The notes under the pieces: model-generated | The model's input: the letters and a program-made list of their open reading frames with translations, nothing else | What the model was told of the DNA's origin: nothing | The model's database searches: none | Assembly: GCA_949288455.1 (NCBI GenBank) | Contig: CASEKF010000045.1 | Coordinates: forward strand, 1-54,230 | DNA: 54,230 nt | Origin: an uncultured bacterium | GTDB taxonomy: Bacteria; Vulcanimicrobiota; CADAWZ01 | Direction of reading: 5' to 3' | Shown here: in pieces, positions 23,044 to 41,086 of the stretch | How the letters are laid out: each line of letters opens with the position of its first letter | Position numbering within the stretch: the first letter of the stretch is position 1 | Translations under genes and position numbers: made by a program

Positions 23044-23874
23044 ATGACGGAAATTATTAACGTTAGTTCTTCCTGTTTTGATTTTTCAATAGACGACGCC
23101 TGCGTTACGATGGGTTTTTTCGACGGTCTTCATATAGGTCACCGAAGATTAATTACTGACGTCGTCTCTTTCGCCGGAGCGCGCGGTTTGCCTTCTTGCG
23201 TTTTCACATATAGAAATCATCCTATGACGGTTCTATCTCCGGAGCAGTCTCCTCAGCTTTTATCTCTTCCAGAAGAAAGATTTGCTCTTATGTCTGAAAT
23301 AGGGCCTGATTATATTATCGTTAATGAATTTACTCATAGCTTCGCTAACGTTTCCGCCGAAGATTTTATATCGGAGATTCTTATAAAAAAACTGAGAGCC
23401 AAATATATTGCGATAGGGGCTAACCATAGGTTTGGACGCTATGCCGGAGGTAATCCCGAATTGCTTTTGTCTTATAATATGTCCGTTAACGTCGTGTCGC
23501 CGATTTTTTTTAACGGTTCAAGAGTTAGCAGTTCTGCGGTTCGACGCGCCGTTTACGAGGGGAATATGAAGTCGGTTTCATCAATGTTAGGGCGTCCTTA
23601 CGGTTTTGATTTTACCAGAACAGCCGATTCTCCCGAATTATTTGTCATAGACGGCAGAAGAGCTCTTCCGCCTGACGGAGAATATTTTGGAACGCTGAAC
23701 GGCGTAGAATGCGAGTTTGAATTTTTCGTTTTACGTCAGTCCGGTTCTTTAAATAAAATAATCGTATCTCTTAAAAGTCCCGTAATTAATCCTTCGGCTT
23801 TCCGTATTTCCGCGTCTTTTTTATCTTGCTTAAGAATATTTTCTGATGAATTAGGAGTTTTGGTTTATGAATAA
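23044..23874 (+). CDS. ribF: RibF-like FAD synthetase, C-terminal kinase half degenerate
   Basis: A 276-residue protein. Residues 1 to about 185 match the adenylyltransferase module of bacterial RibF, which makes FAD from FMN and ATP. GFFDGLHIGHRRLI carries the nucleotide-binding HIGH, then come ANHRFGRYAGG and RVSSSAVRRAVYEG, equivalent to the ISSTxIR motif. Normal RibF continues with a riboflavin kinase barrel containing a GxxLGFPTAN motif. Here the last 90 residues lack it and align poorly, so kinase activity is doubtful. Either another enzyme supplies FMN, or the domain has diverged beyond recognition. The stop overlaps the next gene by eight bases, so translation of the peptidase downstream is coupled to it. 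Confidence 0.82.
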   Translation: MTEIINVSSSCFDFSIDDACVTMGFFDGLHIGHRRLITDVVSFAGARGLPSCVFTYRNHPMTVLSPEQSPQLLSLPEERFALMSEIGPDYIIVNEFTHSFANVSAEDFISEILIKKLRAKYIAIGANHRFGRYAGGNPELLLSYNMSVNVVSPIFFNGSRVSSSAVRRAVYEGNMKSVSSMLGRPYGFDFTRTADSPELFVIDGRRALPPDGEYFGTLNGVECEFEFFVLRQSGSLNKIIVSLKSPVINPSAFRISASFLSCLRIFSDELGVLVYE

Positions 23875-25825
23875 AAAAATTGTGGACGAAATTGTCTCCG
23901 AACTTTCTAAAAAGTTTTCTCGTACAGAGATTATGGAACGCCGCGTTTCCGCCGCGGCCGGTTTTTGGACGGAAAAAGACGGTTCGGAAGAGGATTTTAA
24001 GTCGTTTTGCCTGACTAATTACCTTGAAAGCGAAGAAGACTTGGACAAGCTTGTAGAGAAGGCGGAACGTAATTTTGACGCTATATCGGGATATATGATT
24101 GAAATGTATAGAACGATTTTAGAGCCTCTTCATTTAGATTTGGGAGAGGTTTCTTCCGCCGATCAAATTTTTGCGGATTTTAATCCCATGGCGCATTTAG
24201 ACGAGGATTTTTTCGTTTCCAAGATAGCTTTTTTAATTCTTTTAAATTTTCCCGTTTATTCTCTTGAAGAGAAAAATACTCTCGGGAAAGACTGGGGACA
24301 TAAAGAGTGGATCCGAGCGAGGCTTGCCGATAGATTTACGGAAAGAATTCCTTCCGAAGTTTTGACAAAGGCCTCGTTAGCTTCTTCCAGAGCCGGGATA
24401 TATATTTCAAATTATAATATCCGTATGGATAAAGTCCTGGTAGACGGCAAATCCGGAGTTTTTCCCGAGAATATGAAGTTGATAAGTCATTGGGGACTTA
24501 GAGACGAGTTAAAGGCCCTTTACAAAGATCCTGACGGAATGAGAAAACAGGAAATAATAGAAACCATACTTGCCAGAATAGTTAGAGGCGAAATTCCTTC
24601 GATCGTTATTAATAACGGAGAATACGAATGGGATCCTGAAAAAAATCTGGTTTTTAAAGACGGCAAAGAAGTTCCTTTTCAAAAAGAAGGTTTTGTTCGT
24701 TACGAACATTTGAAAAAGATTTTTGACTCTGAAAAAAGCATAGATCCTTACGCGCCTAATCATCCTACGGCCATGGATCGAAATTTTAATTGCCATGTGG
24801 AAATTCCGGAATCGGAAGTCAGAAGTATGCTTCAGAACGTCCTCGACAGTCATGTGATTAAAGACGTCGCGTCGTTTGTTTCAAAACGCTTGGGACGTCC
24901 GTTGAGGGCTTTCGATATTTGGTACCCCGGTTTCAGAGACGCTTCCGCTTTGAACTCTACGGAGCTTGACAGAATAATTTTGGATAAATATGGAGACAGA
25001 GACGGTTTTCAGAGGAAAATTCCCGATATTCTGCGCTCGTTTGGCTTTTCGGACGAACGTTCCGATTATTTAGCTTCGAAAATAACCGTGGAAGCGTCCA
25101 GAGGAGCGGGGCATGCTATGGGAGCCGGAGGCCGTAAATTTAATTCTCATTTGAGAACCAGATTTGACGGCGGAAAAATGAATTATATCTCGTATAACGT
25201 GGCGATTCATGAATTGGGACATTGCGTAGAACAGGTTTTCTCATTAAATTTATCTCCTTCTCCTCTTATGAGCGGAGTTCCAAACACGGCTTTTACGGAA
25301 GGTTTCGCTTTCGTTTTTCAAGGCAGAGATCAGGAAATTCTCGGTTTAGGGAAAGACTCTTCTAAATCTAATATTATGAAGAGACTTCATGGTTTTTGGC
25401 ATTGTTTCGAATTATCAGGAATATCTCTCGTCTGTTTGGACGTTTGGCATTATATGTACGAACATCAGGACGCTTCTCCGGAGGATATCTGCGATTTTGT
25501 TCTTAAAAAATCCGCGGAATATTGGAATAAGTGGTACGCTCCCGTTTTCGGCGAAAAAGATTCTGTTTTGTTGTCCGTATATTCTCATATGATAGAATAC
25601 GGTTTGTATTTGCCTAATTATCCTTTGGGAGAAATTATCAGAAGTCAGATCGAGGCTCATCTGGTAGGTAAGAATTTGGCTCTTGAGATGGAAAAACTTT
25701 GTGCTCAAGGACGTTTAACCCCGGATATATGGCTTTTAAAAGGAGCCGGAAATCCGATTTCCGCAAAATTTTTGATATCTGCCGCCGAGAAAGCGATAGA
25801 GAGCTTGACTGCAGTCTGCGAATAG
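23867..25825 (+). CDS. Large HExxH zinc metallopeptidase, M3-like
   Basis: A 652-residue, probably cytoplasmic, gluzincin peptidase. The zinc-binding motif is HELGH near residue 448, followed about 25-30 residues later by TEGFAFVFQ, whose Glu is the expected third ligand. The long helical body before the motif and the absence of a signal peptide fit the M3/M32-type bowl-shaped oligopeptidases. It does not carry the standard M3 signature, which reads FHEFGHALH, so I call it M3-like only. The gene overlaps ribF by eight bases and is followed by a clear terminator, so it is the last gene of that transcript. Substrate unknown; peptide turnover is the natural guess. Confidence 0.7.
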   Translation: MNKKIVDEIVSELSKKFSRTEIMERRVSAAAGFWTEKDGSEEDFKSFCLTNYLESEEDLDKLVEKAERNFDAISGYMIEMYRTILEPLHLDLGEVSSADQIFADFNPMAHLDEDFFVSKIAFLILLNFPVYSLEEKNTLGKDWGHKEWIRARLADRFTERIPSEVLTKASLASSRAGIYISNYNIRMDKVLVDGKSGVFPENMKLISHWGLRDELKALYKDPDGMRKQEIIETILARIVRGEIPSIVINNGEYEWDPEKNLVFKDGKEVPFQKEGFVRYEHLKKIFDSEKSIDPYAPNHPTAMDRNFNCHVEIPESEVRSMLQNVLDSHVIKDVASFVSKRLGRPLRAFDIWYPGFRDASALNSTELDRIILDKYGDRDGFQRKIPDILRSFGFSDERSDYLASKITVEASRGAGHAMGAGGRKFNSHLRTRFDGGKMNYISYNVAIHELGHCVEQVFSLNLSPSPLMSGVPNTAFTEGFAFVFQGRDQEILGLGKDSSKSNIMKRLHGFWHCFELSGISLVCLDVWHYMYEHQDASPEDICDFVLKKSAEYWNKWYAPVFGEKDSVLLSVYSHMIEYGLYLPNYPLGEIIRSQIEAHLVGKNLALEMEKLCAQGRLTPDIWLLKGAGNPISAKFLISAAEKAIESLTAVCE

Positions 25826-25938: not shown

Positions 25939-25968
25939 TTGACTTTATTTATATTTATATTATATAAT
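25939..25968 (+). promoter_or_regulatory. Promoter at the left side of the tnpB insertion
   Basis: TTGACT (25939-25944) and TATAAT (25963-25968), 18 bases apart, lie 40 bases before the TTG start of tnpB. It may drive tnpB and, by read-through, the glycosyltransferase operon beyond. Confidence 0.55.
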
Positions 25969-26007: not shown

Positions 26008-27219
26008 TTGCTGACGGCAATAAAATATCGAATCTATCCTACTAAAGCCCAACAAGAGCTTATACGTAAACATTTTGGCTGCGTTAGAGTCGTTTATAAT
26101 TATTTTTTGGATTATAGACAAAAGCAATATGCGCAAGGCATAAAAGAAACTTACTTTACAATGCAAAAAACGCTAACGAAGCTGAAAGCGCAAGCGAATT
26201 ACGCTTATCTTAACGAGTGCAACTCTCAAAGTTTACAAATGGCGTTAAGACAGCTTGTAACGGCTTTTGATAATTTTTTTGCCAGAAGGGCTAAATATCC
26301 AAATTTTAAATCTAAGAGAAATCCAAGGCAAAGCTTTGCTGTCCCTCAAAATATTAGTTTAGATAATAAAAAAGTCTATGTTCCTAAATTTAAGGAAGGC
26401 ATAAAAGTCAAGATTCATAAAACCTTAGATAAAGATTGCGCTATAAAGCAAGCTGTTATCTCCTGCGTAGCCGATACGTATTATATATCCGTTTTTTATG
26501 AAAATAATAAATCCATACCTAAACCTTTAGAAATAAAAAAAGCCGTAGGTTTGGATATGAATTTAGAGAATTTATTGATTACCAGCGATAGGATTATTTA
26601 TTCAGATAAAAAAAAAATACAGGATAAACAATCTAAACTTAAAAAGCTGCAAAGACGATTATCTAAAAAGAAAAAAGGAAGCAACAACAGAAAAAAAGCC
26701 TTTAAAAAAATCGCAAGACTCCATAATAAGATTAATCTTGCAAGAGACGACTATTTGCATAAAATCACTAATGAGATAACCAATCAATATGATTTTATTG
26801 CCTTAGGAACGTTCGACGCAAAAAGTTTCGTCGGAAATAATCGTTTGTCAGAAAGCGTGGCGAGCTTTAATCGGCATAAACTTATTAGAATGCTGACATA
26901 TAAAGCGGAAATAAAAGGCAAAACGCTTATGCTAATCGACAAGTTTTTCCCCGCGTATCAAATATGTTCTTATTGCGGCGCCGATACAGGCAAAAAATCT
27001 TTGCATATGAAACGTTTTGCTTGTCCGCATTGCAATAAGACGCATAATAGAGATCTGAACGCAAGCATTAATATAAGACGTTATGCGTTAGGTATGATAG
27101 ACGATAGACATAGAGTAAAAATAGATAAATCTAGGGTAGGAATTACCCGAAGTTACGCTTGTGGAGATAGCTCCGTAGTTATGTCAAGATATGGCGACAT
27201 ACTTGAATCCGGATGTTGA
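26008..27219 (+). CDS. tnpB: TnpB RNA-guided nuclease family protein, canonical RuvC-II Glu absent
   Basis: A 403-residue TnpB starting at TTG. The N-terminal helix-turn-helix/wedge region begins TAIKYRIYPTKAQQELI. RuvC-I has Asp183 in AVGLDMNLEN, and the zinc finger uses Cys320, Cys323, Cys339 and Cys342. RuvC-III has Asp349 in HNRDLNASINI. The RuvC-II strand reads YDFIALGTFDAKSF (261-274), where typical TnpB has a catalytic Glu in an IVVEDL-like context; here that place is Gly267. The protein may therefore be cleavage-dead, or use a displaced acidic residue as reported for rearranged TnpB lineages. It is otherwise full length with no frameshift. TnpB proteins cut DNA matching a guide carried on the right-end RNA. 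Confidence 0.93.
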   Translation: MLTAIKYRIYPTKAQQELIRKHFGCVRVVYNYFLDYRQKQYAQGIKETYFTMQKTLTKLKAQANYAYLNECNSQSLQMALRQLVTAFDNFFARRAKYPNFKSKRNPRQSFAVPQNISLDNKKVYVPKFKEGIKVKIHKTLDKDCAIKQAVISCVADTYYISVFYENNKSIPKPLEIKKAVGLDMNLENLLITSDRIIYSDKKKIQDKQSKLKKLQRRLSKKKKGSNNRKKAFKKIARLHNKINLARDDYLHKITNEITNQYDFIALGTFDAKSFVGNNRLSESVASFNRHKLIRMLTYKAEIKGKTLMLIDKFFPAYQICSYCGADTGKKSLHMKRFACPHCNKTHNRDLNASINIRRYALGMIDDRHRVKIDKSRVGITRSYACGDSSVVMSRYGDILESGC

Positions 27220-27268
27220 TCGTTGAATCAAGAAGCCCGATACTTCTTAGCGGATGGGCGATTCACTG
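27120..27268 (+). ncRNA. Putative omega/reRNA scaffold of the tnpB element
   Basis: In TnpB systems the guide RNA derives from the 3' part of tnpB and the transposon right end, with the guide just beyond the end. Here that segment can form several short hairpins: GGAG/CTCC near 27164-27175, ATGTC/GACAT at 27181-27200, and the terminal GCCC/GGGC stem. The expected guide would start at about 27265-27269 and read into host sequence. Boundaries are inferred, not seen. Confidence 0.45.
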
Positions 27269-27321
27269 GAATTTATATACTTAAGCCTAATATTAGTTTA
27301 GGATGTTCCCCGGAGGTTTTA

Positions 27322-28419
27322 TTGTCTGAATTTGCCGGTAAACGTATTTTAATTTTGCTTTTGGCCGGAGGCTTAGGAGACGTTCTTCTATCAACCGTAG
27401 TTTTGAAGCCTTTAAAAGCTTTTTATTCCAATTCTTCCATTACTATGATGGTAAAAGCAGGCATGGAGGCTTTGATTGAAGATAACGAATACGTGACTGA
27501 AATTCTTTCGGTAAAAGACGGAAATCTGAAAGGCGAAGCTTTTCGGAAGTGGCTGGTTCAGATAAAGGAACGTCATTTTGACGTCGCCCTGGTGCTTTGG
27601 AACAGATGCGAAGAGGCGCGTTTAGTTTATGAAGCCGGCATTCCCGTAAGGGTAGGGCAGGGCTCCAGATTGTTTTACAGTTTTCTTTATACGCATAAAG
27701 TAACGGTTCGTTCGGAAAAAGGAGATACCGTTACCCATTGGACCGACATAATGCTTGATTACGTCAGGGCTCTTGGAATTCCTGCGAGCAAAGCTGAAGT
27801 ATCGATAAGGTTCCCTTCGGACGAATTATTTTACGACATGCAGCTTTTGCTCCGTCATTACGCTAAAAATGCCGAAGGCCCTTTCTGGGGACTTCATGTT
27901 TCAAAAGGGCTTAAAGTGTCTCCCGAACAATGGCCTATTGATTTTTTTGCTAAGCTTGGAGATACAATCGTCGAAGAATTGGGAGGAGCCGTAGTATTAA
28001 CCGGAACTTCGGACGATCTTCCTATCGTCTCTTTAGTAGCTTCGAAAATGAAAAGGCCTTGCGTTAATTTAGCGGGCAAAACTGATTTAAGAGAGCTTGC
28101 GGCTCTTATGTGCAGTTTGAGGGGATTTGTGGCTCCTGACACCGGCCCCGGGCATATAGCCGCAGTAATGGGAGTCCCTACGGTTTCGATATTTGCTCTT
28201 AAAAGCGATTTTCCTAACAGATGGAAGCCTTTCGGCGTTAAGGTGGCGGTCATAACCCCTGAAAAGTTTAATTGTACTCAGAAAAAATGCGTAAAGGAAA
28301 AATGTTCCGAGTTTATATGTTACAACGCTCTGGATCCGAAACAGATTGTCGCTAAACTCGCCGGAGTGTCTTCTTTCCTTCCGCTTAACAGTCGTTTAAC
28401 GGATATTAAGTCTATTTGA
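27322..28419 (+). CDS. GT9-family glycosyltransferase (ADP-heptose:LPS heptosyltransferase-like)
   Basis: A 365-residue enzyme when started at TTG 27322, which follows a strong CGGAGG SD. The frame is open to 27223, but those 33 extra codons come from the transposon right end and are unlikely to be native. GT9 features are the N-terminal LLAGGLGDVLLSTVVLKPL loop, the FWGLHVSKGLKVSPEQWP donor-binding segment and VAPDTGPGHIAAVMGVPTV. Several Cys near the end (CTQKKCVKEKCSEFIC) are also typical of heptosyltransferases. It would add heptose to the LPS core or a related glycolipid on the inner face of the membrane. The hldE-type kinase two genes downstream supports heptose as the donor sugar. Confidence 0.9.
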   Translation: MSEFAGKRILILLLAGGLGDVLLSTVVLKPLKAFYSNSSITMMVKAGMEALIEDNEYVTEILSVKDGNLKGEAFRKWLVQIKERHFDVALVLWNRCEEARLVYEAGIPVRVGQGSRLFYSFLYTHKVTVRSEKGDTVTHWTDIMLDYVRALGIPASKAEVSIRFPSDELFYDMQLLLRHYAKNAEGPFWGLHVSKGLKVSPEQWPIDFFAKLGDTIVEELGGAVVLTGTSDDLPIVSLVASKMKRPCVNLAGKTDLRELAALMCSLRGFVAPDTGPGHIAAVMGVPTVSIFALKSDFPNRWKPFGVKVAVITPEKFNCTQKKCVKEKCSEFICYNALDPKQIVAKLAGVSSFLPLNSRLTDIKSI

Positions 28420-40754: not shown

Positions 40755-41086
40755 CGTAACTTAGGGAGGCATCCTGCCAAAACACGAAAAAAATTAATCC
40801 GCAAACGCTTTGGCGGCTCCTGAGTAGTTTATAATTATTTCTTCGACTGTCGCCAAAGGCAATTTAGTAAAGGCGTAAAAGAGACCATATTTACTATGCG
40901 AAAATCTCTTGCCATCCTAAAAAGCAAGATAAGTATAAATATCTTAAGGAATCTTATTCTAAAAGAAAAACCCTAAGCAAAGTTACGCTATTCCTCCAAA
41001 AATTACAATCGGTAAACAGTCGAAAGATCAGAAATGATTATTCGCATAAGATAAGCCCTGAAACCAAAGGCAAAACGCTATTTCTT
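40755..41086 (+). pseudogene. Decayed tnpB remnant with internal deletions
   Basis: Pieces of a TnpB appear in order but in shifting frames with stops. HPAKTRKKLIRKRFGG and VVYNYFFDCRQRQFSKG match intact-copy residues about 10-45, and KETIFTMRKSLA matches 46-57. YKYLKES matches about 65-71, KNPKQSYAIPPKI matches 104-115, NDYSHKI matches 247-253, and KGKTLFLL matches 304-310. Only about 330 bases remain of roughly 1,200, so there are large internal deletions plus frameshifts and a TGA. It is clearly related to, but diverged from, the intact tnpB at 26008. No right end or guide-RNA region survives. Its right edge overlaps the stop codon of the PHP gene. Confidence 0.85.

What the first reader, a model, noticed from the sequence alone, without database searches (positions are those of the whole stretch)
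26008..27219. TnpB with canonical RuvC-II glutamate replaced by glycine
RuvC-I Asp183, the zinc finger and RuvC-III Asp349 are intact, but the strand that normally ends in a catalytic Glu reads YDFIALGTFDAKSF, putting Gly267 there. The gene has no frameshift, so it is under some selection or very recent. Two explanations: a cleavage-dead, RNA-guided DNA-binding protein (as for the repressors that evolved from TnpB), or a lineage with a displaced acidic residue (Asp270 or Glu282 are candidates).
Basis: partly seen in the sequence, partly recalled or inferred. Interest (0 to 1): 0.72.

Follow-up and report, generated by a model that had tools for sequence, protein, structure and literature searches.

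The report
IS605 TnpB that lost catalytic glutamate
A stranded gene from a common bacterial jumping element (a TnpB, a small relative of CRISPR Cas12 DNA-cutting proteins) has lost the key glutamate it needs to cut DNA, which all of its close relatives keep, so it is most likely a dying or cutting-dead leftover rather than a new kind of enzyme.

Summary
The 403-aa ORF at 26008-27219 is a TnpB, and its residue 267 (codon GGA, 26806-26808) aligns with Glu278 of ISDra2 TnpB, whose mutation to Ala is published as catalytically dead. It is not a misplaced strand or a known rearranged clade. The protein nests inside the Helicobacter/Campylobacter IS605 clade (60-69% identity to the closest members), and every relative that covers the site, about 90 sequences, keeps Glu. 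The loss is private to this gene. The known relocated-Glu position (pro-Fanzor E_alt) holds Phe313. D270 and E282 are private too, but no precedent or coordinates support a rescue. The change is not isolated: conserved positions are lost across the RuvC/zinc-finger half (11 of 42) and none of 28 in the WED/REC half. The tnpA gene and left end seen in most close relatives are gone, and the guide-RNA 3' hairpin is weakened (3 of 9 covarying pairs broken). The natural guide has no genomic target above chance. Best reading: a cleavage-dead, immobile, orphan IS605 remnant with an intact ORF, probably decaying. A retained guide-dependent DNA-binding (TldR-like) role is possible but unsupported by target, partner gene or conserved clade. 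Ordinary to mildly interesting.

The parts
26008..27219 (+). tnpB coding sequence, 403 aa, TTG start; IS605 type, Helicobacter/Campylobacter clade
26554..26556 (+). RuvC-I Asp183 (kept); the Gly of the D-x-G motif two residues on is Asn185 here
   Evidence: motif from PMC10711439
26806..26808 (+). RuvC-II catalytic position, GGA = Gly267, aligned with ISDra2 Glu278
26815..26817 (+).
26851..26853 (+).
26965..27033 (+). four-Cys zinc finger (C320, C323, C339, C342), kept; the flanking PSSQ motif is PAYQ here
27052..27054 (+). RuvC-III Asp349 (kept)
25939..25968 (+). sigma-70-like promoter TTGACT-18-TATAAT (11 of 12) just upstream of tnpB
   Evidence: consensus match only
27135..27266 (+). predicted omegaRNA scaffold (overlaps the 3' end of tnpB) and transposon right end; less stable than in relatives
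   Evidence: borders inferred from relatives
27235..27259 (+). right-end / omegaRNA 3' hairpin GCCC..GGGC; 3 of 9 covarying pairs broken in this copy
27267..27286 (+). natural guide segment just outside the right end (TGGAATTTATATACTTAAGC)
   Evidence: inferred from the right end
40770..41080 (+). decayed relic of a tnpB of the same clade in the same window (in-frame stops, internal deletion removing RuvC-II)

Best explanation
This is the ORF-intact remnant of an IS605 element of the Helicobacter/Campylobacter type, whose tnpB has lost DNA-cleavage ability. It descends from a canonical D-E-D TnpB. After it lost tnpA and the left end it could no longer move, and its RuvC active site (E267G with G185N, W289R and S316A/S317Y) and the right-end/guide-RNA hairpin are eroding. 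The mechanism inferred is that without the RuvC-II Glu only two of three metal ligands remain, so any RNP that forms could bind but not cut DNA. The gene is most likely on its way to becoming a pseudogene. Shown here: sequence homology, the private loss, loss of tnpA and left end, and hairpin weakening. Inferred: catalytic death and decay.
For: G267 replaces a Glu kept in every relative that covers the site. E278A of ISDra2 is catalytically dead (PMC8612924). D191/E278/D361 form the catalytic centre (PMC10097598). The 41-sequence alignment shows 11/42 conserved positions lost in the RuvC/ZnF half and 0/28 in the WED/REC half, the highest RuvC count of any member (Fisher p=0.002). On this branch omega is 0.17 in residues 262-292 against 0.073 background; heterogeneity p=0.0015. 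Most close relatives examined have a divergent tnpA and a left-end hairpin next to tnpB; here neither is present between 25825 and 26008. The right-end hairpin is -10.5 kcal/mol against -17 to -20 in relatives, with all three broken pairs in this copy. Decayed relics of the same clade lie elsewhere in the genome, and no other intact copy was found.
Against: The ORF has no stop or frameshift, and the branch as a whole is under strong purifying selection (omega=1 rejected, 2dlnL 55). Pure decay should hit both halves of the protein, yet the WED/REC half has lost no near-invariant position. A strong promoter-like site precedes the gene, and the proximal GCCC/GGGC part of the hairpin is kept. The 262-292 segment was chosen because of E267; a scan over all 31-residue windows gives only p=0.11 for clustering. 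The C. jejuni copy L103 shows no annotated tnpA next to it either.
Confidence: 0.6

Rival explanations
1. A nuclease-dead TnpB kept by selection as an RNA-guided DNA-binding protein (works like TldR repressors): RuvC inactivated, guide and TAM recognition kept, binds a promoter or plasmid site and blocks it.
For: Erosion is confined to the RuvC/zinc-finger half, with 0/28 near-invariant losses in WED/REC (permutation p about 0.01 in the clade set). Omega of the WED/REC half on this branch (0.042) is below background (0.077). The ORF is intact, has a promoter-like site, has left its transposase, and sits in a cellular gene cluster.
Against: The guide has no genomic match above the reversed-pattern control, with or without a TTTAA-like TAM. 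The omegaRNA is weakened. There is only a single copy in one genome with no orthologue in the 149 genomes of the phylum searched at that cut-off. There is no conserved partner gene: the downstream GT9-GT4-kinase block occurs in related genomes without tnpB.
Confidence: 0.25
2. An active nuclease with a displaced acidic residue: Asp270 (three residues on) or Glu282 replaces Glu267 as metal ligand.
For: Both acids are new in this protein (Asn and Lys in kin). Rearranged RuvC-II clades exist and one RII-r5 member cuts DNA (PMC10278001).
Against: The protein nests in a canonical Glu clade, not a rearranged one. The documented E_alt site is Phe313 (PMC10711439). Both residues lie after the strand, in the stretch that corresponds to the start of the lid in ISDra2 (its P282 is at the lid boundary, PMC11844463; P282 aligns with Ala271). 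Other active-site neighbours are lost as well.
Confidence: 0.07
3. A sequencing or assembly error at one codon of an otherwise normal, active TnpB.
For: The genome is fragmented (70 contigs), and GAA to GGA is one base.
Against: Many other conserved positions around it are changed in frame, and the right end is changed too.
Confidence: 0.03

Closest known systems
TnpB of IS605, Helicobacter pylori (WP_010889991, plasmid pHPM186), and the C. coli/C. jejuni plasmid copies (WP_002781047)
   Same: 62-69% identity over the whole length, same domain order, same omegaRNA/right-end motif
   Different: They keep RuvC-II Glu, the D-M-G motif, W289 and a stable right-end hairpin, and most have a divergent tnpA (tnpA not annotated beside the C. 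jejuni copy); this one lost all of these
TldR (TnpB-like nuclease-dead repressors; Wiegand et al. 2024, cited in PMC13418256)
   Same: RuvC domain inactivated while the guide/DNA-binding half is kept; no tnpA
   Different: No guide target, no partner gene, weakened guide RNA, no conserved clade; binding not tested
TnpB clades with rearranged RuvC-II (RII-r3, RII-r5; PMC10278001) and pro-Fanzors/Fanzors with E_alt (PMC10711439)
   Same: Canonical RuvC-II Glu missing
   Different: Not phylogenetically there; E_alt position is Phe313; private change in one gene

Membership tests
TnpB (IS200/IS605 RNA-guided endonuclease family) | Full-length family match (guided_TnpB above cut-off; OrfB_IS605, HTH and TNB domains) | tested here: met
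TnpB (IS200/IS605 RNA-guided endonuclease family) | RuvC D-E-D catalytic triad | tested here: not met
   D183 and D349 kept, Glu replaced by G267
TnpB (IS200/IS605 RNA-guided endonuclease family) | omegaRNA overlapping the 3' end and ending at the transposon right end | tested here: inconclusive
   Sequence present, but hairpin weakened; expression untested
Mobile IS605 element | tnpA and left end beside tnpB | tested here: not met
   no Y1 transposase near the gene, no left-end hairpin like that of relatives
TldR (nuclease-dead RNA-guided repressor) | Inactivated RuvC with conserved guide/DNA-binding half | tested here: met
   (pattern by sequence only)
TldR (nuclease-dead RNA-guided repressor) | Guide complementary to a TAM-flanked regulatory target | tested here: not met
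   matches not above control in the own genome (TAM inferred only loosely; genome 98.9% complete)
TldR (nuclease-dead RNA-guided repressor) | Conserved clade of dead proteins with a partner gene | tested here: not met
   only this one protein lacks Glu
TldR (nuclease-dead RNA-guided repressor) | Guide-dependent DNA binding and repression | not testable with these tools
   needs RIP/ChIP and reporter assays
Rearranged RuvC-II TnpB / pro-Fanzor (E_alt) | Glu seven positions before the first zinc-finger Cys (ExxxxxxC) | tested here: not met
   Phe313; definition from PMC10711439
RII-r3 / RII-r5 TnpB clades | Phylogenetic placement in the clade | tested here: inconclusive
   Nests in the canonical Helicobacter/Campylobacter clade; no RII-r references were at hand and the defining paper (PNAS 2023) is not held

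The most novel reading that the evidence does not exclude
An independent, recent origin of a nuclease-dead, RNA-guided DNA-binding TnpB caught at an early stage in the IS605 (H. pylori type) clade: the active site is already gone while the guide- and TAM-reading half is still under selection.
Probability: 0.2. Interest if true: 0.5.

Novelty: new member of a known kind. Interest (0 to 1): 0.25.

Why it matters
Catalytically inactivated TnpBs are known and some have become RNA-guided repressors. If this one still binds DNA it would be a very young case, showing that RuvC erosion can precede acquisition of a new target. If not, it is a useful example of how an IS605 element dies: transposase and left end gone, active site and guide-RNA hairpin eroding, ORF still open. 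It also cautions against calling any Glu-less TnpB a repressor.

Tried and rejected
Misplaced RuvC-II strand: rejected by alignment and AlphaFold2 secondary structure. Compensated double frameshift around RuvC-II: other frames read by eye against relatives, no match. Known rearranged Glu (E_alt): Phe313. Guide target elsewhere in the genome: 77 hits at <=3 mismatches against 79 in the control; TAM-plus-seed pattern 50 against 54. Idea that the genome's relics are sister copies of this gene, which would date its residence: relic 1 ties between this gene and H. pylori IS605 (29 of 53 each), so not usable. Defining papers for RII-r clades and TldR: not held. Further Campylobacterota genomes: 'of' does not accept loci.

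Full report
Observation. The ORF at 26008-27219 (+) encodes 403 aa with no internal stop and is a full-length TnpB: NCBIfam guided_TnpB 276 bits against a cut-off of 100, and Pfam OrfB_IS605, HTH_OrfB_IS605 and Cas12f1-like_TNB. Aligned with ISDra2 TnpB, D183 and D349 take the places of D191 and D361, and G267 (GGA, 26806-26808) takes the place of E278. By count along the printed chain, 278 is exactly the Glu in IIGTEHLKPDNM. The AlphaFold2 model built with 40 relatives (mean pLDDT 84.8) shows a strand 263-267, and its best PDB matches are TnpB structures. The strand was placed correctly.

Is it a lineage feature? No. I collected about 95 relatives from viral contigs, bacterial genomes, plasmids, phages and the host phylum. 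Every one that covers the site has Glu at the aligned position, including the closest: C. coli and C. jejuni plasmid copies at 69%, H. pylori IS605 at 62% and other Helicobacter at about 60%. A tree places the window protein beside the C. coli copy inside that clade (support 0.93 to 1.0). The loss is private to this gene. Within the host phylum (149 genomes) other TnpBs are at most 39% identical, which points to horizontal acquisition.

Is a replacement acid likely? RuvC-II rearrangements are known. In pro-Fanzors the Glu sits seven positions before the first zinc-finger Cys (PMC10711439); here that residue is Phe313. Clades RII-r3 and RII-r5 exist and one RII-r5 member is active (PMC10278001), but this protein nests in a canonical clade. 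D270 (Asn in most kin) and E282 (Lys in all 17 clade members) are private acids. [quoted passage not shown] I had no coordinates and cannot exclude them geometrically. The direct experimental analogue, ISDra2 E278A, is catalytically dead (PMC8612924).

How far has the rest of the protein changed? In 41 diverse sequences, using columns at least 90% conserved among the others, the window protein departs at 0 of 28 in residues 1-180 and 11 of 42 in 181-361 (G185N, G195R, V235I, S254T, E267G, L269F, I284V, W289R, S316A, S317Y, R335K). The Fisher p is 0.002, and this is the highest RuvC count of all 41. Some of these changes are shared with the clade (for example position 195 also departs in H. pylori), so the private core is G185N, E267G, L269F, W289R, S316A and S317Y. 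A codon model I wrote with shared neutral branch lengths gives, for this branch, omega 0.042 (residues 2-180), 0.058 (181-361 without RuvC-II) and 0.171 (262-292), against 0.077, 0.072 and 0.073 for the rest. Heterogeneity: 2dlnL 13.0, 2 df, p=0.0015. Omega=1 for the whole branch is rejected by 2dlnL 55. The C. coli branch shows no such rise. Caveats: synonymous sites are saturated, and the segment was chosen because of E267; a scan over all windows gives p=0.11 for clustering.

The element. In the Campylobacter, Helicobacter and H. pylori relatives tnpA is divergently encoded about 45-65 bp upstream of tnpB; the C. jejuni copy L103 shows no annotated tnpA there. A GAAATCCC..GGGATGAA left-end hairpin is visible in most of the loci printed. 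Here only 182 bp separate tnpB from the preceding gene; neither tnpA nor that left end is there, and the genome's Y1 transposases lie on other contigs. The right end is recognisable (AAGCCC..GGGC-GATTCAC, 27235-27266). Its hairpin shows clear covariation across relatives (97% of cells paired, covariation above all 500 shuffles), and the only three unpaired cells are in this copy. Its folding energy falls from -17 to -20 to -10.5 kcal/mol, and the whole predicted omegaRNA is -31.9 against -39 to -52. The four GC pairs at the base, the GATTCAC end and the conserved CCGAAGTTACGCTTGTGGAG block are intact, so the scaffold is weakened, not destroyed. The natural guide downstream has no genomic match above control. 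Decayed relics of the same clade lie at window 40770-41080 and on contigs C27, C53 and C24, so such elements have died here before.

Neighbourhood. Downstream are a GT9 glycosyltransferase, a GT4 glycosyltransferase and a PfkB kinase. This block is kept in related genomes without tnpB beside it, which also shows that the glycosyltransferase starts at 27322, not at the mechanical ORF start 27223.

Conclusion. Cleavage death is likely (about 0.85 to 0.9, inferred from E278A and the surrounding losses). For what it now does, decay as an immobile orphan is the most economical reading (0.6). A retained, TldR-like guided binder (0.25) is suggested by the untouched WED/REC half but lacks target, partner, clade and a sound guide RNA. 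A displaced catalytic acid (0.07) has no support beyond the presence of two new acids. Dead TnpBs are a known kind; the case is a new member, of modest interest.

Noticed in passing
window 40770-41080: Decayed tnpB relic of the same Helicobacter/Campylobacter IS605 clade, with an in-frame stop and an internal deletion that removes RuvC-II; similar fragments on contigs C27:884-996, C53:29298-29439 and C24:9488-9537 of the same genome.
   Followed up: partly
window 23867-25825: 652-aa protein with an HELGH zinc-protease motif upstream of tnpB; no Pfam, NCBIfam or PDB sequence match.
   Followed up: partly
window 27223-27321: The mechanical ORF of the GT9 glycosyltransferase runs back through the transposon right end; comparison with a related genome (L167) shows that the true start is the TTG at 27322.
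   Followed up: yes
L004 (G000:C19:24765-25907): Another TnpB copy in this genome is read through 3 TAA codons, with its neighbouring Y1 transposase carrying stops (L109), while the copies on C12 and C62 look intact with tnpA: several IS605-type families at different stages of decay.
   Followed up: no
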